From Syntrophorhabdaceae bacterium (lineage in GTDB: Bacteria; Desulfobacterota; Syntrophorhabdia; Syntrophorhabdales; Syntrophorhabdaceae), in contig DASXUJ010000051.1 of assembly GCA_036504895.1 (NCBI GenBank), positions 1 to 39,281 on the forward strand: 39,281 nt of DNA. The letters run 5' to 3'. Below are positions 406-12,096 of the stretch, piece after piece; within the stretch, counting starts at the first letter, position 1, and each line of letters opens with the position of its first letter. The notes below the pieces were generated by a model, which had not been told where the DNA came from, made no database searches, and saw nothing but the letters and a program-made list of their open reading frames with translations. The position numbers and the translations under genes were made by a program.

Positions 406-1023
406 ATGAAGAGACTTATCGCTTTATTTGTCTTCATAGGCATCATAGGCATGGCCGCGGCTTCCTTCGGGAAGGATTTCGTGGTGAGAAAGGTCCTGAG
501 CGGCGACACAGTCCAACTGGAATCGGGAGAGATAGTCCGGTACCTGGGAATAGATGCGCCGGAGCTGTTTCTGAAAGAAGGGGGCAGCGAATTCTTCGCC
601 AAAGAGGCTGCCCGCCATAATAAAAAGCTCGTCCTCCTCAAGAAGGTGAGACTCGAATTCGATTCCGAAAAGAAGGACCACTACGGCAGACTCCTTGCAT
701 ATGTTTTCGTCAAAAATGTGTTTATCAATGGAGAGTTGGTAAAGGGGGGATATGCGAGGGCGACGGTAAAGCCGCCCAATGTGAAATATAAGGATATGCT
801 CCTCGATTATCAGAAAAAGGCCATGGAAGAGGAGAGGGGGCTCTGGCAGGAAAAGAAGAAGGACACGGAGAAATATTACATCGGAAATAAGAGAAGCTAT
901 GTGCTTCACAGGCCGTCGTGTAAGAATGCCCTGAAAATACCCGACAAAAATAAAATAGTCTTTCATAACCGCATGGATGCGATTAAAATAGGCTACGTAC
1001 CGGACAAATACTGTAAGCCATGA
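406..1023 (+). CDS. Secreted thermonuclease (SNase-like) with Ada-type zinc-binding-like tail
   Basis: 205 residues. Residues 1-22 form a signal peptide, so the enzyme should act outside the cytoplasm. Residues about 25-147 are a staphylococcal-nuclease fold, a Ca2+-dependent phosphodiesterase cutting DNA and RNA. The key residues are present: Asp34 in SGDTV, Arg45, Asp50 and Glu53 in RYLGIDAPE, and Arg95 in HYGRLLAY; the Thr of the S. aureus enzyme is Ala51 here. Residues about 155-205 (YIGNKRSYVLHRPSC ... DKYCKP) resemble the metal-binding domain of Ada, though only two cysteines remain, so metal binding is doubtful. The stop codon overlaps the start of the next gene by 4 bases (ATGA), which implies translational coupling to the ATPase downstream. 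Confidence 0.88.
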   Translation: MKRLIALFVFIGIIGMAAASFGKDFVVRKVLSGDTVQLESGEIVRYLGIDAPELFLKEGGSEFFAKEAARHNKKLVLLKKVRLEFDSEKKDHYGRLLAYVFVKNVFINGELVKGGYARATVKPPNVKYKDMLLDYQKKAMEEERGLWQEKKKDTEKYYIGNKRSYVLHRPSCKNALKIPDKNKIVFHNRMDAIKIGYVPDKYCKP

Positions 1024-2609
1024 TCGAGGAGTATCTCCAATACTGGGGGCTTGACCGCCACCCTTTCCTTCTTGCCCCCGACAGCCGCATGATGTGTGTG
1101 ACGGGTCAGTACTATGAATGTCTCGAGCGCCTGAAATATGCCATTACGACGGGAAAGGGCGGGGTCCTTCTCGTCTCGGAGGACGCGGGTCTCGGCAAGA
1201 CGACCCTCCTTCTCAAACTTATCGACGATATGAAAGAGAGATACGGCGATGCCTTCAGATACGCCTACATCGATCATCCCACCCTGAGTGCCGCTCAGAT
1301 GATCTCCCTTATTACGAGTCAGATATCGGGTATTCCGGCAGGCGAAGACAAGCTCAGAAACCTCGATGTCCTGAAGAGCACGCTGATCGATGCGAAGGAG
1401 CAGGGCGGCAAGAGCATTATAATAGTAGATGAGGGGCAGCTTCTCTGTGAGGCCCACGACGTGCTTCAGGAGTTGAGGATACTGATCAACCTCACTCATA
1501 TGGGCGAATACCTCCATACCTTTATTCTCTCCGGTCAGCGGGCATTATGGCATACTATAAAGTCAATGCCCGAATTCTGGCAGAGACTGCCGGTGCGATA
1601 TTATTTCGTGCCCCTCAAGCTCGAGGAGACAAAGGAACTGGTAAATTACAGGCTCTACAGGGCAGGGGCTGAAGAAGGACGGGAAGTCTTTCAGGAAGAC
1701 GCCCTCGAGATCATACATCGCTATGCAAAAGGCTCCCCCCGGACACTGATCGCCCTTGCCGACCTCTCGCTCCTTGTGGGATATACGAATCATGCGGCAA
1801 GAATCAGCTTCAAAGAGGTTTCCAAGGCTATTCAGGCAATGTCCGGCCAGGGCGAAAGCCTTCCTTATGTAAGGGAAGAGGGACCCCGGGAAACGGGACC
1901 GTCCCTCTCCAGCATCTCGACAATAGAGCGGCCTGTGGACCGCCCTCCCTGGAAACGACCTGAATACTCCGAAGCCATGCTCAAGACCTCACCCCCTATG
2001 ACGGATAAGTTCAAAAAAGTAGTGCGACCCGGGCCGGCATACCTGATCCTCGCCTTCGTTGCCCTGTTCCTCGCGGGGATGGTAACCTATTTTTACATCT
2101 CCGACTCTTTCGCCAGAAAAAGAATTGCCAACCCGGCGCCGGCCGCGAGCCAGACCCCGGAGAAACCCCTTTCCGGTCAAAACCCCGTTTCCCCGACGGT
2201 GAACGGGGCAGGACCTGCGCCGGACGCTCCCCAAGTGCTATCTCAGCCCGCTCCGCAAGTCACCGCGCAGCCCGCTCCCCAGATTACATCTCAGCCAGCT
2301 TCGCAGATAATTCCGCCAAAACCCCTTCCTCAGGCACCGCAAAAGGAGGCGGCGGAAAAGATTACCCTTTCCCCGGCCGCCGGGAAGAATGCGCTGGTCG
2401 TCGCCGAGGCAGGAAACATCAGAAACGCCCCGGATCTCGACGCCCCGAGGATAGGGGTAATTTTCAAGGATGAAACGATCAGGATCTTTGACGAAAAAAA
2501 GGACCGGAACGGGGAGAGGTGGTTTATGGTCCACATCTACGGCAAGAAAGAGGGATGGATCTCGGAGAGGGTGGTGGAGGTACGGGAAGGGCTAAGTCCG
2601 GAACAATAG
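1020..2609 (+). CDS. ExeA/GspA-like AAA ATPase with transmembrane segment, Pro-rich linker and C-terminal SH3 domain
   Basis: 529 residues. The N-terminal ATPase (about 1-270) opens with the ExeA-type YLQYWGLDRHPFLLAPDSR motif. Walker B is IIIVDEGQ (133-140). Walker A reads EDAGLGKT (54-61): the first glycine of the usual GxxxxGKT is glutamate. One membrane helix follows (about 340-362), then a Pro/Ala/Gln-rich stretch with repeated QPAPQ-like units (about 370-445), then a bacterial SH3 domain (about 448-520). ExeA/GspA ATPases help place type II secretin through peptidoglycan; a periplasmic SH3 fits peptidoglycan contact. That role is inferred from family. It is coupled to the nuclease upstream and convergent with selB, 14 bases away. 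No secretin or other gsp gene is in view. Confidence 0.82.
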   Translation: MIEEYLQYWGLDRHPFLLAPDSRMMCVTGQYYECLERLKYAITTGKGGVLLVSEDAGLGKTTLLLKLIDDMKERYGDAFRYAYIDHPTLSAAQMISLITSQISGIPAGEDKLRNLDVLKSTLIDAKEQGGKSIIIVDEGQLLCEAHDVLQELRILINLTHMGEYLHTFILSGQRALWHTIKSMPEFWQRLPVRYYFVPLKLEETKELVNYRLYRAGAEEGREVFQEDALEIIHRYAKGSPRTLIALADLSLLVGYTNHAARISFKEVSKAIQAMSGQGESLPYVREEGPRETGPSLSSISTIERPVDRPPWKRPEYSEAMLKTSPPMTDKFKKVVRPGPAYLILAFVALFLAGMVTYFYISDSFARKRIANPAPAASQTPEKPLSGQNPVSPTVNGAGPAPDAPQVLSQPAPQVTAQPAPQITSQPASQIIPPKPLPQAPQKEAAEKITLSPAAGKNALVVAEAGNIRNAPDLDAPRIGVIFKDETIRIFDEKKDRNGERWFMVHIYGKKEGWISERVVEVREGLSPEQ

Positions 2610-2623
2610 GGTGTCCTGAGCGG

Positions 2624-4519
2624 CTATTTCCGAAGGACCCGCTTGTCTCCGACCCTTATGGTCAATTTTATCTCGTCGAGATATTCGAGGATGGGGATCA
2701 TATATTTTCTCGACAAGTCGAACATGCCTTTGAAATCGGCAGGAGCCATCTCCTTTTGCGCCACCAGATGTCCGGTCACCCGCTCCTTTAAAGAATCGAT
2801 GACTTTCCCATGAAAATAAATATCACCTTTGGTCTTGACGACCTTTTTCTCGAATACGAGCCTCTCCAGGACATCCCTGAGGTTCTTTTCCGCGATCTTC
2901 GTCTCCGCTGAAAGGTCCTTTATCCCGGGAGGGGTGAGGCCGTAGCTCTCGAGCTTCCTGAGTACCTCGTCTCCGAGCCCTTCTGCCCCGCCTTGTGTGC
3001 CGGCACTTCTCCCCTGCTCCCTCACCTTGTCCTTATCCGTTTCCACCTTGGCTTCGGAGATGGTCTCGTCCAGGACTAACTGAAATATCTGGGGCTCGAC
3101 TTTAGGCAGGCGGGACCGTAACTCTTCCTTGGAAATCCCCACTTTGAGCGGATTCTTAGCATGAAAATCGTGAAGAATGGCGAGGAGCATCTCCTTGTAC
3201 TTAATGAGCCACTCCGTGTGGATTATCATTCTGCCTGAAACCCTGACCTTCTTTTGCCCCTCGAGGCGGGAGACGATGCGGTCGGTAAAGGCGGTCTCCT
3301 TGCCCAAAAGCACGGAGAGCATATTCCTCGTTGTTCCCCCGTACTCCCCTTTCCGTATGTGGAATTCCGCTTTCCCCATCTCGTCGCTTCCGGACAGGAG
3401 CTCGCACATCTCATCGAGACCCGCGGTCTTTCGTTTATGCCGCCGGGGCATGACGTCGATAATCTGGCCCCCTCCGATGGTCTGTATCGCGTAAGGCCCT
3501 CTAAGGATATAGCGGTCGCCGGGCAAGGTGACAATGGGATGGGGGAATACGAACTGGGTAAAGGACTCCTCCCCGGGTTCTATCTGATCCGCCTCCAGGA
3601 GGATAAGCCGTGCCTCCGTCTGGTTCGTGGCAATGTGGAAACGCAGGGTAGTGTCATTTCGCACGGGTTTCAAAGGGAGCTTCAAGTATGTGAGCGTCGC
3701 ATCGATTCTATTGGAGAGGATGAGCGTATCGGGTCGTCCGATAATGGTGCCCCTCTCGACCTCCTGCTTCTCGACGCCCTGAAGATTGAGGGCAACGCGC
3801 TGGCCTGCCGACGCTTCGGGGGCATCTTCATGGTACGCCTGGATGTTCCTGATCTTGGCGCGCCTACGGAAGGGGTATATCTCGATCTCGTCCCCCACTT
3901 TGATTGAGCCGGATATGCAGGTGCCCGTGACAATGGTGCCGAGGCCTCGGATCGTAAAGACCCTGTCCACGGGGAGCCGGAAGATGCCCTCCCTGGACCT
4001 TTCTTCAAGCTCCATCGCCATGTCGTGGATCGTATTGCGGAGAAGCTCTATGTTCTCGCCTGTAGTCGCCGAGACCGGTATGATAGGTGCGCCACCCAAA
4101 GGACGGCCTTTCAGAAAATCCGCCACGTCCTCCTTTGCCATCTCCACCATCTCTTCATCCACGAGATCGGTTTTGGTAATGGCCACGATGCCCCTTTTCA
4201 GACCGAGAAGTTCGCATATATCCACGTGCTCCCGGGTCTGAGGCATGACGCCTTCATCCGCGGCAACCACGAGCAGCGCCATGTCTATCCCCCACGCCCC
4301 TGCGACCATATGGCGGACGAACTTTTCATGGCCCGGAACATCGACGATACCGATGGAAAGATCGTCGCCCGATCTATAGTGGGCAAACCCGAGCTCGGTG
4401 GTGATGCCCCTTTCCTTCTCTTCCTTCAACCGGTCGCAGTCGATGCCCGTGAGGGCCTTGATAAGGGTTGTCTTGCCGTGATCGATGTGTCCTGCGGTCC
4501 CTATGACTATTCTCTTCAT
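2624..4519 (-). CDS. selB: Selenocysteine-specific translation elongation factor SelB
   Basis: 631 residues from the ATG at 4519, near the 614 of E. coli SelB. It delivers Sec-tRNA(Sec) to ribosomes at UGA codons marked by a SECIS hairpin. All GTPase motifs are present: GHIDHGKTT (G1), [11 protein letters not shown] (switch I), DVPGHE (G3), TKTD (G4). EF-Tu-like beta-barrel domains follow, and the C-terminal 200 or so residues contain the winged-helix region that binds SECIS. An in-frame ATG at 4540 (MYSEDTD extension) is possible, but homologues begin at [11 protein letters not shown]. The gene stands alone here; selA, selC and selD are not visible. A selenocysteine formate dehydrogenase gene lies at 14671-17376, giving SelB a client in this window. 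Confidence 0.96.
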
Positions 4520-4756
4520 GTCGGTATCTTCACTATACATTATTTTTGGCGGCCGTACAATTGTTCCGGCGGATAACGGGAGCGACGCGAATGGGGGCGG
4601 AGGCATGGAACCCTCGCCTGAAGGTGAATGGTCCCTCCTGTGAATGGGTCCGAAACGGTGGAGGACACCGACAAAACCGTTGCAATCCTCACCAATACTG
4701 TGTTTCTATTTATATACAGGCTTCAAAACCATAAGTGCCGGAGGAGGATTTATACC

Positions 4757-5887
4757 ATGAGAAAGGCTATGATCGGGGCGTGTGTAATACTCGCCTCCTT
4801 CCTGTTCATACCATATTCCTTCGCGAAGGAAACCGTAAAAATAGGCGTCGTAACCCCCCTCACGGGGGACGTGAAGACCTACGGTGAATCGACAAAAAAT
4901 GCTTTTTTGATCGCCGTGGAGGAGTATTCGAAGAAAGGAAAATATACCATAGTGCCGGTCATCGCGGATGACAGGAACGATCCGACCGAGGGGACGAATG
5001 CGACCCTTAAGCTGATTACCCAGGATAAGGTGGTGGCGTTAGTAGGGCCCCTCACGTCCAAGGTAGCCATTCCTATGAGCGAGATCGCCCAGAAGAACAA
5101 GGTTCCCATGATCACCGGCACGGCGACGAACCCCAAGGTGACGGTGAGCGACGGAAAGCGGAAATCCTATGTCTTCAGGACCTGCTATACGGACCCCTTT
5201 CAAGGCTCGACTGCGGCAAATTTTGCGCTCAAAGAGTTGAAGGTGAAGACCGCCGCGGTGCTCTATGATGTGAGCAACGATTACTCCAAGGGCCTGGCCG
5301 ACGTCTTTAAGACCACCTTTACTAAAGGGGGCGGCGCCATTACGGCATATGAATCGTACCAGAAGGACGATGTCGATTTTTCCGCCCTGATCACGAAGTT
5401 GGCCATGAAGAAGCCGGAGGTGGTCTACCTGCCCGATTACTATAATAAGGTCGGCCTCATCTCGAAGCAGATAAGGGAAAAAGGCGTGAAGGCGACACTC
5501 CTCGGAGGTGACGGCTGGGACTCTCCCGACCTTGCGAAGATAGCGGGCTCCGCCATCGTGGGCGGCTACTTCACGAACCACTACTCTCCTGACAGGAAAG
5601 ACTCCGTGACCCAGGCGTTCATCAAAAAGTACAAGGAGAAGCACGGCATAGTGCCCGACGCGCTGGGATCGCTTGCATATGACGCCACCATGATCCTCTT
5701 CAAGACCCTCGACAGCGCTAAATCGCCCACTTCCGAGGAGATCGTGAAAGGCCTTGGAACTATAAAGAACTTCAAAGGGGTGACGGGAAACATCAGCTTC
5801 GACAAAAACGGAGACTCGGTCAAATCGGTGGTCATTCTGAAAATGGAAAAAGATAAAGTGCGGTACGTCACGACCATAGAGCCTTAA
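4757..5887 (+). CDS. livK: Branched-chain amino acid-type ABC transporter, periplasmic substrate-binding protein
   Basis: 376 residues. A signal peptide (MRKAMIGACVILASFLF, cleavage after SFA) precedes the type-1 periplasmic binding fold typical of Leu/Ile/Val-binding proteins. It begins VKIGVVTPLTGDVKTYGES, with DDRNDPTEGTN and ALVGPLTSKVA further on. The protein should capture the substrate for the permeases and ATPases encoded next. The ligand cannot be read from sequence: this family also includes amide, urea and aromatic-acid binders. The ATG at 4757 is preferred because GGAGGA lies 9 bases upstream and it starts exactly at the signal peptide; an upstream in-frame ATG at 4628 would put a non-signal stretch in front. 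It is the first gene of an eight-gene plus-strand run. Confidence 0.93.
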   Translation: MRKAMIGACVILASFLFIPYSFAKETVKIGVVTPLTGDVKTYGESTKNAFLIAVEEYSKKGKYTIVPVIADDRNDPTEGTNATLKLITQDKVVALVGPLTSKVAIPMSEIAQKNKVPMITGTATNPKVTVSDGKRKSYVFRTCYTDPFQGSTAANFALKELKVKTAAVLYDVSNDYSKGLADVFKTTFTKGGGAITAYESYQKDDVDFSALITKLAMKKPEVVYLPDYYNKVGLISKQIREKGVKATLLGGDGWDSPDLAKIAGSAIVGGYFTNHYSPDRKDSVTQAFIKKYKEKHGIVPDALGSLAYDATMILFKTLDSAKSPTSEEIVKGLGTIKNFKGVTGNISFDKNGDSVKSVVILKMEKDKVRYVTTIEP

Positions 5888-5923: not shown

Positions 5924-6814
5924 ATGGAAGTCCTAGGCTATATATGCGACCAGTGCATTAACGGTCTTCAGCTCGGCGCCGTCTATGCCCTCATTGCGCT
6001 CGGCTATACCATGGTCTACGGGGTGCTCCGGCTCATCAACTTCGCCCACGGCGATATCTTCATGCTGGGCGCCTTCATCGCCTATTATTTTATCGCAAAA
6101 TTGAGCATTCCCATCTATTTCGTCTTTGTCATCACCATGGTCCTTACAGGCTGCGCCGGCTTCATCATCGAGAAGGTGGCCTATAAGCCGCTCCGGAAGG
6201 CGCCGAGAATCTCGCTCCTCATCACCGCGGTGGGTGTCTCCCTTTTTCTCGAATATTTCCTGAGCCTGAAAGCCATCTTCACTCCCGATTACATCGGGTT
6301 TCCCCGGCCCTTTGAAGTGACTGCCTATGACCTGGGGCTATTCTCCATCACCAACGTGCAGCTTCTCATCTTCGCGGTCACGGGCGCGGCGCTGACCGGC
6401 GTCTATTATCTGGTCTACCGGACGAAACAGGGGAAAGCGATGAGGGCGGTCTCGTACGACGAAGAGGTGGCTTCCCTCATGGGCATAAACATCGACAGGA
6501 CCATTTCCTTCACTTTCGTGGTGGGCGCGTCCCTTGCGGGCGTGGGGGGTATCCTCTACGGCATTGCCTATCCCCAGATAAACGTATTCATGGGGGTCAT
6601 GCCGGGGATCAAATCTTTTATCGCCGCGGTGTTGGGCGGTATAGGGATCATTCACGGCGCGGTTCTCGGGGGCTTTATTATCGGTCTCTCCGAGGTCTTC
6701 GTTTCGGCCTTTCTCTCCTCCACCTTCAGGGACGGCGTAATCTTCATCATTCTCTTCGTGGTCCTCCTTCTGAAGCCGAGCGGCATCTTCGGGAAAAGGA
6801 TCGAGAAAGTATGA
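5924..6814 (+). CDS. livH: ABC transporter permease, LivH family
   Basis: 296 residues, nearly all hydrophobic, with about eight membrane helices. The start (YICDQCINGLQLGAVYALIALG) and the motif YGVLRLINFAHGDIFMLGAF are hallmarks of LivH inner-membrane permeases of branched-chain amino acid-type importers. The cytoplasmic stretch RTKQGKAMRAVSYDEEVASL, followed by MGINIDRTI, is the loop that contacts the ATPase. It begins 36 bases after livK and its stop overlaps the livM start (ATGA at 6811), so livH and livM are translationally coupled. Confidence 0.95.
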   Translation: MEVLGYICDQCINGLQLGAVYALIALGYTMVYGVLRLINFAHGDIFMLGAFIAYYFIAKLSIPIYFVFVITMVLTGCAGFIIEKVAYKPLRKAPRISLLITAVGVSLFLEYFLSLKAIFTPDYIGFPRPFEVTAYDLGLFSITNVQLLIFAVTGAALTGVYYLVYRTKQGKAMRAVSYDEEVASLMGINIDRTISFTFVVGASLAGVGGILYGIAYPQINVFMGVMPGIKSFIAAVLGGIGIIHGAVLGGFIIGLSEVFVSAFLSSTFRDGVIFIILFVVLLLKPSGIFGKRIEKV

Positions 6815-7761
6815 ATTTTTTCAAAGAATCGAGAAAGTTCCTTTTTCTTTCCCTCCTCATCTATGTGGTCCTCAAGAGCGTCTTTTCCCTGGGCATCGTC
6901 TCTCAATATATCGAGCAGATTACCCTCTATGCCTTCATCGTTATCCTCGCGTCCCTGGGGCTCAATGTGATCTACGGGTATACGGGACAATTCTCCCTGG
7001 GCCACGCGGCGTTCTACGGTCTCGGCGCCTATGTGTCCGCCTATCTGACGCGGGTCTTCGGTATCGAAGGGGTGCTCGGCTTTCTGCCTGCCATAGTAGT
7101 GAGCGGAGTGGTTACGGGGGCGGTTGGCTACGTGATAGGCATTCCCGTTCTCAAGCTGCGAGATGATTTTCTTGCAATCGCCACCCTCGGGCTGGGAACC
7201 CTCTTTAAGGTGATCCTCGATAACTCGGATAAAATCACCGATATATTGGGCGGCTCACGGGGGTTCGTCGGTATCCCGCGGATCACCAATCTCGAGCTCA
7301 CCCTCTCCGTAATGGTCTTTCTCATTCTTGTCACGCGAAATATCATATTTTCGAGATACGGTCTCTTCTGGCGCTGCATCAAGAACGACGAGCTCGCCGC
7401 CGTTTCGATCGGGATCGACACGGCAAGGATGAAGCTCATGGCCTTCTCATTCGGCTGTGCGCTGGCCGGGGTTGCGGGTGCGCTCTATGCTCATCTCTAC
7501 ACTTTCCTCCATCCTTCCAATTTCGACATCCTGAAATCGATCGACTTCCTTATCATTGTCATCATAGGCGGGATGGGGAGCATCACGGGCACTATCTACG
7601 CCGGGCTCATATGGGTGGGCGTTATCGAGGGCTTGAGGATACTCCTGCCCACGGATATGCTCGATTTAAGGTGGGTCCTGATCCCCCTGTTCCTCATCAT
7701 CCTGATGATGTGGAGGCCCTACGGCCTCATTACCAAAACCTCGAGATGGGGCAGGTCATGA
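6811..7761 (+). CDS. livM: ABC transporter permease, LivM family
   Basis: 316 residues with about nine hydrophobic segments. GLNVIYGYTGQFSLGHAAFY is the characteristic LivM motif, and IKNDELAAVSIGIDTARMKL is the ATPase-contacting loop. It pairs with LivH to form the membrane channel of the importer. Translation starts inside the livH stop codon. The gene ends 16 bases before the likely livG start. Confidence 0.95.
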   Translation: MNFFKESRKFLFLSLLIYVVLKSVFSLGIVSQYIEQITLYAFIVILASLGLNVIYGYTGQFSLGHAAFYGLGAYVSAYLTRVFGIEGVLGFLPAIVVSGVVTGAVGYVIGIPVLKLRDDFLAIATLGLGTLFKVILDNSDKITDILGGSRGFVGIPRITNLELTLSVMVFLILVTRNIIFSRYGLFWRCIKNDELAAVSIGIDTARMKLMAFSFGCALAGVAGALYAHLYTFLHPSNFDILKSIDFLIIVIIGGMGSITGTIYAGLIWVGVIEGLRILLPTDMLDLRWVLIPLFLIILMMWRPYGLITKTSRWGRS

Positions 7762-7777: not shown

Positions 7778-8554
7778 TTGGACGATATGATCGCCCTCGA
7801 AGTAAAGGACCTGAGGAAGAGCTTCGGCGGCGTCCAGGCCGTGGATTCCATCTCCTTTAAGGTCAATGAGGGCGAGACGCTCAGCATCATAGGACCGAAC
7901 GGGGCGGGGAAAACGACCGTATTCAACCTGATTACGGGATTTTATCGGCCCGATTCAGGGTCGGTAAGGTTTTTCGGCAAAGAAATCACTGTCATGGCGC
8001 CCTACAAGCTTCCCCATATCGGTATCGGAAGAACTTTTCAGAATATGAGGCTTTTCGGCGATCTCACCGTCTTCGAAAACCTCCTGGCAGCCCTTCTGAG
8101 GAGGAAAGGCTATTCCATCTGGTCCACTATCTTCAGGACCGACGGCTATTTCCACGCAGAGGCACACGCCGAGGCCAGGGCGAGAGAGCTGATCGAGTTC
8201 TTTCAGCTCTCGGGGAAAGAAGATTATCCCGCAAAAAGCCTCCCTTATGGAGAGCAAAGAAGGTTGGAGTTGGCCAGGGCCCTTTCGACCGATCCTAAGC
8301 TCCTGCTTATAGACGAGCCCGGTGCGGGCATGAACCCCAGGGAGATCATGGATCTCGTGGACACCTTAAGGGTGGTGAAAGAGCGATTCCGGCTTACCCT
8401 GCTTATCATAGAGCACCAGATGGGACTCGTCATGAGACTGTCGGACCGGGTGATGGTGATGGATTTCGGAGAAAAGATCATGGAGGGCCTGCCCGAAGAG
8501 GTGAAGAAAGATAAGAAAGTAATCGAGGCATACCTGGGGGATGAATTCGCATGA
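7778..8554 (+). CDS. livG: ABC transporter ATP-binding protein, LivG family
   Basis: 258 residues counting from TTG at 7778. GGAGG at 7767-7771 sits six bases before this TTG but fifteen before the ATG at 7787, so the TTG is preferred; the ATG version would be three residues shorter. The Walker A motif GPNGAGKTT (39-47), Q-loop region GRTFQNMRLF, LivG-type signature LPYGEQRRLELARAL and Walker B LLLIDEPGAG are all present, and the switch histidine is in IIEHQM. One of two ATPases powering the liv-type importer from the cytoplasmic face. Confidence 0.94.
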   Translation: MDDMIALEVKDLRKSFGGVQAVDSISFKVNEGETLSIIGPNGAGKTTVFNLITGFYRPDSGSVRFFGKEITVMAPYKLPHIGIGRTFQNMRLFGDLTVFENLLAALLRRKGYSIWSTIFRTDGYFHAEAHAEARARELIEFFQLSGKEDYPAKSLPYGEQRRLELARALSTDPKLLLIDEPGAGMNPREIMDLVDTLRVVKERFRLTLLIIEHQMGLVMRLSDRVMVMDFGEKIMEGLPEEVKKDKKVIEAYLGDEFA

Positions 8555-8603
8555 CCCCGCCGCACACTCTCTTCGATCTATTTCCAAAGGAAGGGGTAGT
8601 CTC

Positions 8604-9314
8604 ATGCTGATGGAGGTCAGAAACCTTTCGGTCAATTACGGGGCTATAGGCGCCCTTCACGACCTCTCCCTCCACGTGAGACCTGGAGAGATCGTCTCGG
8701 TCATAGGGGCCAACGGCGCGGGTAAGTCCACACTCCTCAAGACGGTCACCGGCCTTATAAAACCTGTGTCGGGATATATAGAATGGGAAAAAAAAGCGAT
8801 CCAGGGCATGAGGCCCGACAGGATAGTGAGGCTGGGCATCACCATGGTCCCCGAAGGACGGCGGGTCTTTCCCGATCTTTCGGTGAAGGAGAACTTGGAG
8901 CTCGGGGGGTACGTCCTCAAATCTTCGGAGCTGAAGAAGGAGCTTTTCGACCTCGTCCTCTCTACATTTCCCCGCCTCAAAGAGCGGATCAAGCAGCAGG
9001 CCGGAACTCTGTCCGGCGGAGAGCAGCAGATGCTGGCCATGGGCAGGGCCCTCATGGGAAACCCGCGGCTTCTTCTCCTCGATGAGCCATCCATGGGTCT
9101 TTCGCCCATCATCACCAGGGAGATATTCTCTCTCATTCGTCTCATAAACTCTGAAAAGGGCATCTCGATTATTCTCGTGGAGCAGAACGCCCATATGGCC
9201 CTGGAGCACTCCCAGCGGACTTATGTACTGGAGAATGGGAGACTGGCCATGGAAGGTCTTTCCCGCGACGTGAAAACCGACAGATCTGTTATCGAAGCCT
9301 ATTTGGGAGTATGA
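8604..9314 (+). CDS. livF: ABC transporter ATP-binding protein, LivF family
   Basis: 236 residues from the ATG at 8604, which follows a GGAAGGGG ribosome site. An in-frame ATG at 8541 lies inside the end of livG and would add a non-conserved extension; the ATG at 8610 is also possible. Walker A GANGAGKST, signature LSGGEQQMLAMGRAL, Walker B LLLLDEPSMGLSP and the LVEQNAHMAL switch region are intact. It works with LivG as the heterodimeric motor. The stop codon is one base before the next gene, which ties the CobD-like protein to this transporter operon. Confidence 0.94.
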   Translation: MLMEVRNLSVNYGAIGALHDLSLHVRPGEIVSVIGANGAGKSTLLKTVTGLIKPVSGYIEWEKKAIQGMRPDRIVRLGITMVPEGRRVFPDLSVKENLELGGYVLKSSELKKELFDLVLSTFPRLKERIKQQAGTLSGGEQQMLAMGRALMGNPRLLLLDEPSMGLSPIITREIFSLIRLINSEKGISIILVEQNAHMALEHSQRTYVLENGRLAMEGLSRDVKTDRSVIEAYLGV

Positions 9315-9315
9315 G

Positions 9316-10356
9316 ATGAACCTTTATGATTTTGCCGAGAAAGGAAAATGGTCTTTGGACCGGATCCACGATTTTGCCACCGGCGTCAACCCTTTGGGTC
9401 CGTCCCACAAGGCGGCCCGGGCCGTAAGGAAAGAGGCGGGCCGGCTCGAGTTCTTTCCGGACGAGAAGGCGCGGTACCTGAAAAGATACCTCTGCAGGAT
9501 CGAAGGACTGGAGGAAGACCGGATTCTCTTCGGCGCCGGCTCGACCCATCTTCTCGGCCTGCTCATGGACAAGGTGAAGCCGGAGGTCGTGGGTCTTCTC
9601 TCCCCTTGCTCCCAAAGGGTTCACGAGATTCTGGCTCCGCATTCGGCCGGAATAGAATTGATCCCCACGGAGGGAGACGGCAAGTTCAGCATACCCGTCA
9701 AAAGGCTTTGCGACCGGATGAAAGAAGTTGACATGCTCATCCTGGGAAACCCCCACCATATGACGGGTACGGCCATTTCCGGAGAGGATCTTTCCACCCT
9801 TATCTCGGAAGCCGCGGCTGCCGGCACTATCCTCGTTATCGACGAAGCCTTCAGAGACTATACCACTGTTGTTTCACCCGTCAGAGAGGTGGCGGAATCC
9901 GCGTCCGCCGTGATCCTGAGGACCTTTTCTCTTTATCACGGGTTTGCGGCGCTTCGACTCGGTTACATGATCGGCCCTTCCGGGCTGATAAGGAAAATAG
10001 AGCCCGCACGGCCTTCGGCCCAGATAAGCTCTCTGGCGCTCCGTGCTGCGCAGGCGTCTCTCAGAGACCGGGAGCACAGGGAGAGGACATTCAAATTCGT
10101 GGCGGAAGAGAAGGCGTATTTCAGTCGAAAGCTGTCGACCGTCCCGGGCGTGGATATGATCGACACGCCGTGCAATTTCGTCCTCCTCCGGATGAAGGGC
10201 GAATGGGAAGCTCTAGGCCGGGAGCTTCTCGCGAAGGGTATTATGATAGAAGGATTTCAAAGTGAAAACGACGATTTATATGTGCGGCTGCCGGTAGGAA
10301 GACATAAATCGAATGCCTATTTCATGCGTTCATTACGCAAAATTTTGGGGGGTTAA
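9316..10356 (+). CDS. CobD/HisC-like fold type I PLP protein lacking the Schiff-base lysine
   Basis: 346 residues. The family is plain: HDFATGVNPLGP at the start is the CobD/HisC opening, and FGAGSTHLL, GNPHHMTG (144-151), IDEAF (175-179), FAALRLGYMIG and a C-terminal LYVRLP carry cofactor- and substrate-contacting residues. Related enzymes are threonine-phosphate decarboxylase and histidinol-phosphate aminotransferase. The lysine that binds pyridoxal phosphate, in S-x-S-K-x-x-G-L-x-x-L-R, is absent: the motif reads TFSLYHGFAALR, with Leu206 (codon CTT at 9931-9933) where Lys belongs. It may be a binding or regulatory pseudoenzyme, or work by another mechanism. It starts one base after livF and ends one base before the nucleotidase gene; no cobalamin or histidine genes adjoin. 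Confidence 0.85.
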   Translation: MNLYDFAEKGKWSLDRIHDFATGVNPLGPSHKAARAVRKEAGRLEFFPDEKARYLKRYLCRIEGLEEDRILFGAGSTHLLGLLMDKVKPEVVGLLSPCSQRVHEILAPHSAGIELIPTEGDGKFSIPVKRLCDRMKEVDMLILGNPHHMTGTAISGEDLSTLISEAAAAGTILVIDEAFRDYTTVVSPVREVAESASAVILRTFSLYHGFAALRLGYMIGPSGLIRKIEPARPSAQISSLALRAAQASLRDREHRERTFKFVAEEKAYFSRKLSTVPGVDMIDTPCNFVLLRMKGEWEALGRELLAKGIMIEGFQSENDDLYVRLPVGRHKSNAYFMRSLRKILGG

Positions 10357-10357
10357 C

Positions 10358-11914
10358 ATGCACAAGCTACTGAGGGCTTTCGTATTATTTCTGGGATGGG
10401 CAATGCTTTTCATTCCGTCCCTCTCCCACGCCGACGCCTTCAGCGATATGAAGCAGATAAGGATCCTCTACATGAATGATTTTCATGGCTTTGCGCAGGA
10501 GCATAAGGCCATGGGGTCCGATGAAGAGGTGGGCGGCATCGCCTATCTCGCGGCACGGGCGGAGACGCTGCGGAAGGAAAAGCCCGCCCTTCTCGTTGCC
10601 GCGGGCGATATGATCCAGGGGAACAACTGGGCCAACCTTTTTCAGGGGCAATCAGTCATAAAGGTGATGAACGAGATGCGGTTCGACGCCATGGTGGTGG
10701 GAAACCACGAATTCGATTACGGCCAGGCAATCTTAAGGGAGAGGATCGGAGAGGCCAAATTTCCGGTTCTGGGCGCGAATGTAGAGGGTATCAAGGAGCT
10801 GAAGCCTTATGTAATAAAGACGATCAACGACGTCACCGTGGCGATTATCGGCGTGGTGACGGAAGATACGCCCTTCACCACCCATCCGAGAAACGTGGCG
10901 GGCCTGAAGTTTCTATCTCCCGAGACGGTCGTGGAACGATACGTGAGAGAGCTCAGGAACAAGGTGGAGATCATTGTAGTCCTCTCCCACATCGGCATCA
11001 ATATGGACTTCAGCCTCGCCGAGAAGGTCAAAGGCATCGATGTGATAGTGGGCGGCCATACCCACACGAAGCTCGATTCATATTTACCGGTAGGGAAAAC
11101 GATTATAGTCCAGGCCTGGGAGCATGGCCGTGTCCTCGGGGTCCTCGACCTTACGGTGAGAAGGGGGGAGGTCGTGTATGCCCAGAGCCGTTTGGAAGAG
11201 ATAAAGCCGGCGAAGATGAAGAAAAATACCCTGGTGGCCGCTACGGTGAACAAATATGCCGGAGAGATCAGTGCGGCAATGAAAGCAGCCGTCGGAGAGG
11301 CGGGGGTCGATCTTGACGGAACAGGCGTGCGGCAGAAAGAGACCAATCTGGGCGATATGGTGGCAGACATTATAAGGGAAAAGGCAGGCTCCGACGCGGC
11401 GATCATCAATGGAGGAGGCATAAGGACGAGCATTCCAAGGGGGAGGGTCTCCATGGGAGACGTCTATGGCGTCCTGCCCTTCGATAATTACATAGTAGCC
11501 TTTAAGCTCACGGGAAATCAGGTCCGCGAGGCGCTGGAGCATGGGGTATCGGGGGTGGAAAACGGGGAAGGCGCGTTTCCCCAGGTCTCCGGCCTGAGCT
11601 TCACCTATTCGAAGACTGCGCCGAAAGGGTCGAGAATAAAAGAGGTCCTGATAAATGGGGCACCACTCGAGGCAACTAAAATATATACGGTGGCCACGAA
11701 TGATTTTCTCGCAGCCGGCGGAGACGGATATAAAAGTTTCGGCGAGGCGGTAAAGTCGTCCGGAGATTATGCGGTAATGGGCGGTGCGATGAAGGGTGAG
11801 AACCTCATCTACAGCGATTCGGGCAGATGGATAAGGGATGTGGTGATCGATTACGTGCGCGCGAAAAAGACGGTCAACCCCCAGGTAGAGGGGAGGATAA
11901 AGGAGCTGCCCTGA
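10358..11914 (+). CDS. Periplasmic 5'-nucleotidase / 2',3'-cyclic phosphodiesterase family metallophosphatase
   Basis: 518 residues from the ATG at 10358, which has a GGGGGG ribosome site six bases upstream. A signal peptide (to about residue 25, SLSHA) precedes a calcineurin-like domain with the full two-metal set: Asp41 and His43 (NDFHG), Asp84 (GDMIQG), Asn116-His117 (GNHEFDYG), His211 (SHIG), His234 and His236 (GGHTHT). A 5'-nucleotidase C-terminal domain (about 320-500) with NGGGIRTSIPRG and PFDNYIVAF provides the nucleotide pocket. Family members remove phosphate from nucleotides in the periplasm so that nucleosides can enter the cell. The gene is part of the liv-type operon, and its stop overlaps the next start (TGATG). 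Confidence 0.92.
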   Translation: MHKLLRAFVLFLGWAMLFIPSLSHADAFSDMKQIRILYMNDFHGFAQEHKAMGSDEEVGGIAYLAARAETLRKEKPALLVAAGDMIQGNNWANLFQGQSVIKVMNEMRFDAMVVGNHEFDYGQAILRERIGEAKFPVLGANVEGIKELKPYVIKTINDVTVAIIGVVTEDTPFTTHPRNVAGLKFLSPETVVERYVRELRNKVEIIVVLSHIGINMDFSLAEKVKGIDVIVGGHTHTKLDSYLPVGKTIIVQAWEHGRVLGVLDLTVRRGEVVYAQSRLEEIKPAKMKKNTLVAATVNKYAGEISAAMKAAVGEAGVDLDGTGVRQKETNLGDMVADIIREKAGSDAAIINGGGIRTSIPRGRVSMGDVYGVLPFDNYIVAFKLTGNQVREALEHGVSGVENGEGAFPQVSGLSFTYSKTAPKGSRIKEVLINGAPLEATKIYTVATNDFLAAGGDGYKSFGEAVKSSGDYAVMGGAMKGENLIYSDSGRWIRDVVIDYVRAKKTVNPQVEGRIKELP

Positions 11915-12096
11915 TGACGGTCACGGTCAACAATGTGGAGGTTCACCTCCCGACGGGAATGACCGTGCGACACGCCCTGATTGGCGCGAATTTCCTGGAA
12001 GAGGTCGAAAAAGGCAAAAAAGTTTATGATCAGTGGGGGAATGAAGTAGGTCTGGCAGGGGCACTGTGGGACGGAATGGTGCTGGAAGTAAGATAA
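11914..12096 (+). CDS. Small beta-grasp protein (ferredoxin/ThiS-like fold, no cysteines)
   Basis: 60 residues, coupled to the nucleotidase by a one-base stop/start overlap. MTVTVNNVEVHLPTGMTVRH matches the first beta hairpin and helix of beta-grasp domains such as the plant-type ferredoxin fold. The end, VYDQWGNEVGLAGALWDGM, looks like a conserved loop and last strand. There are no cysteines for an iron-sulfur cluster and no terminal Gly-Gly, so it is neither a ferredoxin nor a MoaD/ThiS sulfur carrier. Its function is unknown; fixed placement after the nucleotidase suggests a shared role. Confidence 0.7.
   Translation: MTVTVNNVEVHLPTGMTVRHALIGANFLEEVEKGKKVYDQWGNEVGLAGALWDGMVLEVR

What the first reader, a model, noticed from the sequence alone, without database searches (positions are those of the whole stretch)
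9316..10356. CobD/HisC-like protein without its PLP lysine, inside a transporter operon
Leu206 (CTT) replaces the Schiff-base lysine while neighbouring residues (GNPHHMTG, IDEAF, ALRLGY, LYVRLP) are kept. A lysine codon would need two or more base changes, so it is not a simple error. Intact flanking motifs suggest selection for a non-enzymatic or novel role, for example as a ligand sensor linked to the liv-type importer.
Basis: partly seen in the sequence, partly recalled or inferred. Interest (0 to 1): 0.6.

Follow-up and report, generated by a model that had tools for sequence, protein, structure and literature searches.

The report
Lysine-less CobD-like protein family, function unproven
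A whole order of mostly uncultured anaerobic bacteria carries a maintained relative of the vitamin-B12 enzyme CobD that has lost the lysine needed to hold vitamin B6, so a classic enzyme fold appears to have been reused for some other, probably non-catalytic, job.

Summary
Window 9316-10356 (+) encodes a 346-aa CobD/HisC-fold protein with Leu206 (CTT) where the PLP Schiff-base lysine (Lys216 of Salmonella CobD) should be. It is not an error or a one-off. 42 of the 46 held genomes of its order (Syntrophorhabdaceae and relatives) carry the orthologue. None of the 42 has Lys there (E15, T10, L5, V4, D3, A2, I, S, F), and they form one branch of the tree with 100% support. The genome's own CobD- and HisC-like paralogues keep the lysine. 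dN/dS of 0.17-0.30 shows purifying selection. The rest of the PLP site is also eroding: the phosphate Arg is kept in 14 of 42, the Tyr in 5, the Asn in 23. Asp176 and clade-specific residues (Arg38, Pro326, Ala334, mostly His330) are kept. It is best read as an old CobD-like pseudoenzyme. Its actual role (regulator, adaptor, ligand binder) is inferred, not shown.

The parts
9316..10356 (+). Lysine-less CobD/HisC-like protein (pseudo-CobD), 346 aa
   Evidence: AlphaFold2 model pLDDT 82.1, pTM 0.84; nearest solved folds CobD 1lkc/1lc7/1lc8
9931..9933 (+). Codon CTT (Leu206) at the Schiff-base lysine position
10358..11914 (+). Exported metallophosphoesterase/5'-nucleotidase-like gene (518 aa), 1 base after the pseudo-CobD stop; NDFHG, GNHE and GHTH motifs intact
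   Evidence: Pfam 5_nucleotid_C 161 bits and Metallophos 61 bits; sequence; conserved neighbour
11914..12096 (+). 60-aa beta-grasp (ThiS/TGS/ubiquitin-like) protein without C-terminal GG, start overlapping the nucleotidase stop
   Evidence: conserved in 18 neighbourhoods; no Pfam family; model pLDDT 91.8, beta-grasp structures among weak Foldseek hits, none with E below 0.001
4628..5887 (+). Liv-type substrate-binding protein
   Evidence: Pfam Peripla_BP_6 204 bits
5924..6814 (+). LivH-type permease
   Evidence: position and conservation in the cluster; named from sequence
6811..7761 (+). LivM-type permease
   Evidence: named from sequence
7778..8554 (+). LivG-type ATPase
   Evidence: named from sequence
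8586..9314 (+). LivF-type ATPase, 1 base before the pseudo-CobD start
   Evidence: ABC_tran 114 bits

Best explanation
The gene encodes a pseudoenzyme. A CobD-like protein of the fold type I aminotransferase superfamily lost its Schiff-base lysine once, before or at the origin of the order Syntrophorhabdales, and so can no longer run the normal PLP cycle. It was then kept under purifying selection while much of the PLP pocket drifted (shown by sequence and tree). Inferred: the fold now serves as a non-catalytic binding protein or regulator in the cytosol, through positions that are newly fixed in this clade (Arg38-Lys39, Cys286, Pro326, His330, Ala334). It is made together with, and probably acts in the same process as, the exported 5'-nucleotidase-like phosphoesterase encoded directly downstream, i.e. 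use of external phosphate esters or nucleotides. In some lineages the co-transcribed liv-type importer takes part too. The nearest working analogy is MalY, a fold-type-I PLP protein that represses a transporter regulon by binding MalT. The partner and ligand are unknown.
For: 42/46 genomes of the order have it; 0/42 have Lys. One clade with SH-aLRT 100, apart from Lys-bearing CobD and HisC. The site varies even between close copies (I vs V at 96% identity; V vs E at 83%), so no substitute catalytic residue is fixed. PLP-phosphate and ring contacts are eroded: Tyr56'-equivalent 5/42, Asn 23/42, Arg224-equivalent 14/42 (Pro in 22), GNGST loop lost. NG86 dN/dS 0.17-0.30 over 12 pairs. Clade-specific fixed residues. 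Full-length CobD fold predicted. Conserved tight pairing with the nucleotidase gene, often with 4-base overlap. Precedent for a fold-type-I protein acting as regulator: MalY-MalT (PMC10427625).
Against: No partner, ligand or phenotype is known; the regulatory step is inference. Asp176 and Glu177 are invariant or nearly so, which could mean that a pyridine-like or other ligand is still bound. The window copy keeps Asn145, Asp176, Ser205, Arg214 and Arg324 and might bind PLP or PMP non-covalently. About a third of the genomes have the protein without the nucleotidase next to it, so that link is not obligatory. The root of the tree was placed at the midpoint, so derivation from CobD rather than from a common CobD/HisC ancestor rests on profile scores, which differ little (CobD 164.6 vs HisC 159.5 bits), and on structure hits.
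Confidence: 0.7

Rival explanations
1. It is still an enzyme but with chemistry that does not need the lysine: either PMP-dependent like ColD/E1, or a new PLP-free reaction in the remodelled pocket.
For: Asp176 and Glu177 are kept in 42/42 and 41/42, and His147 (31/42), Cys286, His330 and Asn333 are fixed or common. Lysine-less PMP enzymes of this superfamily exist: E1, ColD and SpnQ carry His in place of Lys (PMC8987622).
Against: ColD-type enzymes depend on a conserved His at the lysine position; here His occurs in 0/42 and the site is free to vary. The phosphate Arg is lost in 28/42. The conserved residues are not known to line one pocket.
Confidence: 0.15
2. It is a non-catalytic subunit that pairs with a lysine-bearing homologue (CobD or HisC), as LCB1 pairs with LCB2 in serine palmitoyltransferase.
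For: Fold-type-I proteins are usually dimers; LCB1 is a known lysine-less partner (PMC3794620). HisC-like homologues are general in the order.
Against: CobD with Lys was confirmed by tree placement in only 14 of the 42 genomes, with two more probable hits. No HisC/CobD homologue was seen next to the gene in the neighbourhoods read.
Confidence: 0.12
3. It is a decaying relic or an assembly/sequence error with no function.
For: Faster evolution than its neighbour (dN/dS 0.17-0.30 vs 0.10-0.16 for the nucleotidase) and erosion of cofactor residues.
Against: Open in 42 genomes, invariant positions across families of the order, dN/dS well below 1, conserved gene pairing.
Confidence: 0.03

Closest known systems
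CobD, L-threonine-O-3-phosphate decarboxylase (TIGR01140; PDB 1lc5/1lc7/1lc8/1lkc)
   Same: Closest curated profile (164.6 bits) and top Foldseek hits; full-length fold; NPLG, IDE and C-terminal Asn333 motifs
   Different: No Schiff-base lysine in any of 42 members; far below the curated cut-off of 290.55; PLP-phosphate Arg and Tyr mostly lost; not beside cobamide genes in the operon read here
HisC, histidinol-phosphate aminotransferase (TIGR01141)
   Same: Same superfamily and fold (159.5 bits; Z 34.2 with 3get)
   Different: No lysine, below cut-off 276.55, separate clade
MalY, PLP protein that represses MalT in the E. coli maltose system
   Same: Fold-type-I protein with a binding/regulatory job connected to a transporter system; MalY structures are among the model's fold matches (1d2f, 8bob)
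   Different: MalY binds PLP and has lyase activity; 14% identity in the fold alignments; no MalT-like partner was identified here
LCB1/SPTLC1, lysine-less subunit of serine palmitoyltransferase
   Same: Lysine-less member of a fold-type-I pair kept by selection (PMC3794620)
   Different: LCB1 works with a lysine-bearing homologue; no such obligate partner is seen here
ColD/E1/SpnQ, PMP-dependent 3-dehydratases
   Same: Lysine replaced in an aminotransferase fold (PMC8987622)
   Different: They have a fixed catalytic His; here the position is free to vary

Membership tests
Aminotransferase class I/II superfamily (PF00155, fold type I) | Profile match above Pfam cut-off | tested here: met
   82.1 bits vs 19.7
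Aminotransferase class I/II superfamily (PF00155, fold type I) | Fold | tested here: met
   Z 33.7-34.2 over 316-325 residues with CobD/HisC
CobD (TIGR01140) | Curated equivalog cut-off 290.55 bits | tested here: not met
   164.6 bits; the genome's other CobD scores 340
CobD (TIGR01140) | Schiff-base lysine (Lys216) | tested here: not met
   Leu206; 0/42 orthologues with Lys
CobD (TIGR01140) | PLP-phosphate Arg224 and Tyr56' | tested here: not met
   Window copy has Arg214 but Phe47; clade 14/42 and 5/42. Residue roles are from general knowledge of CobD/HisC structures
CobD (TIGR01140) | Threonine-phosphate decarboxylase activity | not testable with these tools
   needs purified protein
HisC (TIGR01141) | Curated cut-off 276.55 bits | tested here: not met
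   159.5 bits
ColD/E1-type PMP-dependent dehydratases | Conserved His at the lysine position | tested here: not met
   His in 0/42
LCB1-type non-catalytic partner subunit | Lysine-bearing close homologue in every genome | tested here: inconclusive
   CobD confirmed in 14/42 only, but HisC homologues are general
MalY-type regulator | Binds and represses a transcription factor of a transporter regulon | not testable with these tools
   no binding data

The most novel reading that the evidence does not exclude
The protein is a new kind of cytosolic sensor or adaptor, or a PLP-free enzyme, in which an entire bacterial order reused a CobD-like fold whose emptied cofactor pocket binds a different ligand. 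It would control or complete a phosphate-ester/nucleotide scavenging pathway with an exported nucleotidase and a previously undescribed beta-grasp protein.
Probability: 0.3. Interest if true: 0.7.

Novelty: new variant of a known kind. Interest (0 to 1): 0.5.

Why it matters
Annotation pipelines would call these proteins aminotransferases or CobD, and metabolic models would credit the organisms with an enzyme they do not have. A PLP-fold family in which the catalytic lysine is absent across a whole order, with many degrees of pocket decay, is a good natural series for studying how a cofactor enzyme becomes a non-enzyme. It also points to an uncharacterised gene unit (pseudo-CobD, nucleotidase, beta-grasp protein) in little-cultivated syntrophic bacteria.

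Tried and rejected
Sequencing or assembly error: rejected (42/42 genomes, three codon differences). Genuine CobD of the organism: rejected; a Lys-bearing CobD lies on contig C72 (340 bits). Alternative catalytic residue at the site: rejected, nine different residues occur. Obligate CobD partner: not supported by co-occurrence. Exclusive tie to liv: rejected. Members outside the order: none of 297 sampled genomes of the phylum has a match above about 250 bits outside family f1 of the window; f2 members were found, and f3 members of the same order score 220-233 bits and were recognised by the missing Lys and the tree. Literature search for lysine-less CobD or aminotransferase pseudoenzymes in bacteria found no description of this family (open-access text only, so absence is weak evidence). 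The first profile was too diverse for the named-genome scan, so a narrower one was used. A first alignment treated minus-strand loci in the wrong orientation and was redone.

Full report
Observation. The ORF at 9316-10356 (+) translates to 346 aa with the signature of a fold-type-I aminotransferase: NPLGPS, GAGST, GNPHHMTG, VIDEAF, ILRTFS, ALRLGYMIG, YVRLP. Pfam Aminotran_1_2 matches well above its cut-off (82.1 vs 19.7 bits). NCBIfam gives CobD (164.6 bits) and HisC (159.5 bits), both far below their equivalog cut-offs. Residue 206, codon CTT, is Leu. A profile alignment with Salmonella CobD (1lc5) places this column on Lys216. The three HisC/CobD-like paralogues of the same genome keep Lys.

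Is it real and old? The best hits in related genomes were aligned. None carried Lys (minus-strand loci had to be reverse-complemented after a first wrong pass). A profile search of all 46 held genomes of the order found 39 members at 292 bits or more in families f1 and f2, and three more at 220-233 bits in family f3. Four genomes lack it: G329, G041 and G020 (66-88% complete) and G007 (96% complete). Named records place the group in Syntrophorhabdaceae/Syntrophorhabdus metagenome assemblies. In a maximum-likelihood tree with the lysine column left out, the 42 proteins form one side of a branch with SH-aLRT 100, apart from Lys-bearing CobD and HisC. States at the site are E15, T10, L5, V4, D3, A2, I1, S1, F1. 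Close copies differ there (Ile vs Val at 96% identity, Val vs Glu at 83%), so nothing has replaced the lysine functionally.

Selection. NG86 dN/dS is 0.17-0.30 in twelve close pairs, against 0.10-0.16 for the neighbouring nucleotidase. The protein is constrained, though less than its neighbour. Positions fixed or nearly so in this clade but not in CobD include Arg38 (42/42), Pro326 (42/42), Ala334 (42/42), Gly220, His330 (37/42), Cys286 and His147.

State of the cofactor site. Asp176 (partner of the PLP ring nitrogen in this superfamily, general knowledge) is kept in 42/42. Asn145 is kept in 23/42, the phosphate Arg214 in 14/42 (Pro in 22), the Tyr of the neighbouring subunit in 5/42, the carboxylate Arg324 in 21/42, and the GNGST phosphate loop is lost. 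Only seven members, the window copy among them, keep Asn145, Asp176, Arg214 and Arg324 together. The window copy is therefore conservative for its clade and might still bind PLP or PMP without a covalent bond; the clade as a whole does not look like a set of PLP enzymes.

Fold. AlphaFold2 on 11 sequences gave pLDDT 82.1, pTM 0.84. Foldseek's best matches are the CobD structures 1lkc, 1lc8 and 1lc7 (E about 1e-24, TM 0.8); VIA-align gives Z about 34 for CobD and HisC alike. The N-terminal 22 residues are poorly predicted.

Neighbourhood. In the window the order is SBP-livH-livM-livG-livF-pseudoCobD-5'-nucleotidase-beta-grasp, with gaps of one base on either side of the gene of interest. Across the 42 genomes the nucleotidase follows directly in 24, and in 4 more it is cut by a contig end or joined in an odd open frame. 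The nucleotidase was detected in 30 genomes of the order at E below 1e-100; clear cases where it lies elsewhere are G004 and G003. Liv genes lie upstream in about 10, and only the binding-protein gene in two more. In genera g5, g9 and g11 a HAD hydrolase and a 92-aa zinc-ribbon protein stand upstream in the opposite direction; in f3 they lie directly upstream on the same strand with no liv and no nucleotidase. The zinc-ribbon gene is found in 40 of 46 genomes, in the window's genome on another contig. The nucleotidase plus beta-grasp pair also exists in other families of the phylum without this gene next to it. The pseudo-CobD is thus an order-specific companion of an older pair, not a fixed part of an importer.

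Mechanism. Shown: loss of the lysine, single clade, maintained reading frames, site erosion, conserved neighbours. Inferred: no PLP catalysis; a binding or regulatory role in the cytosol connected with external phosphate-ester or nucleotide use. MalY, a PLP protein that binds and inhibits the regulator MalT (PMC10427625), shows that this fold can act in that way; LCB1 (PMC3794620) shows lysine-less subunits; ColD/E1 (PMC8987622) shows lysine-less PMP enzymes with a fixed His, which is not the case here.

Verdict. New variant of a known kind: a pseudoenzyme family of the aminotransferase superfamily.

Noticed in passing
window 11914-12096 (+) and 17 other loci (L035, L036, L039, L042, L044, L046, L051, L054, L062-L065, L067, L069-L072): A 60-aa protein (consensus MKVxVNxxEIxLxPGMTVRHALIGAGL...GKKVFDEWGNEVGLDGAL...RIYV) with predicted beta-grasp fold, no Pfam family and no C-terminal GG, after the 5'-nucleotidase gene; the pair also occurs in other families of the phylum.
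   Followed up: partly
L117 8892-10121, L119 88-1224, L116 8349-9434, L118 421-1527 (family f22): Sporadic lysine losses in CobD-like proteins (His, His, Asn, Gln) of another family, separate from the clade of the finding. L117 lies near genes that read like CobU, CobT and BtuFCD and still scores above the CobD cut-off (300 bits); close relatives in the same family keep Lys.
   Followed up: partly
L120 8235-9118, L046 173-1104 and others: HAD hydrolase plus 92-aa zinc-ribbon protein with no Pfam match, a conserved pair beside the lysine-less gene in f3, g5, g9 and g11; in f3 also near a ZnuABC-like metal importer (named from sequence).
   Followed up: partly
L057-L061: In genera g12 and g2 the lysine-less gene follows GlcD-like, GlcF-like and AMP-ligase genes and is linked with an inositol-monophosphatase-like gene.
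   Followed up: no
window 2624-4606 (-): selB, selenocysteine elongation factor (370.7 bits, cut-off 242), divergent from the liv operon; also next to it in L035 and L047.
   Followed up: no
window 1020-2609 (+): ATPase resembling the XrtA/PEP-CTERM-associated ATPase (134 bits, below cut-off).
   Followed up: no
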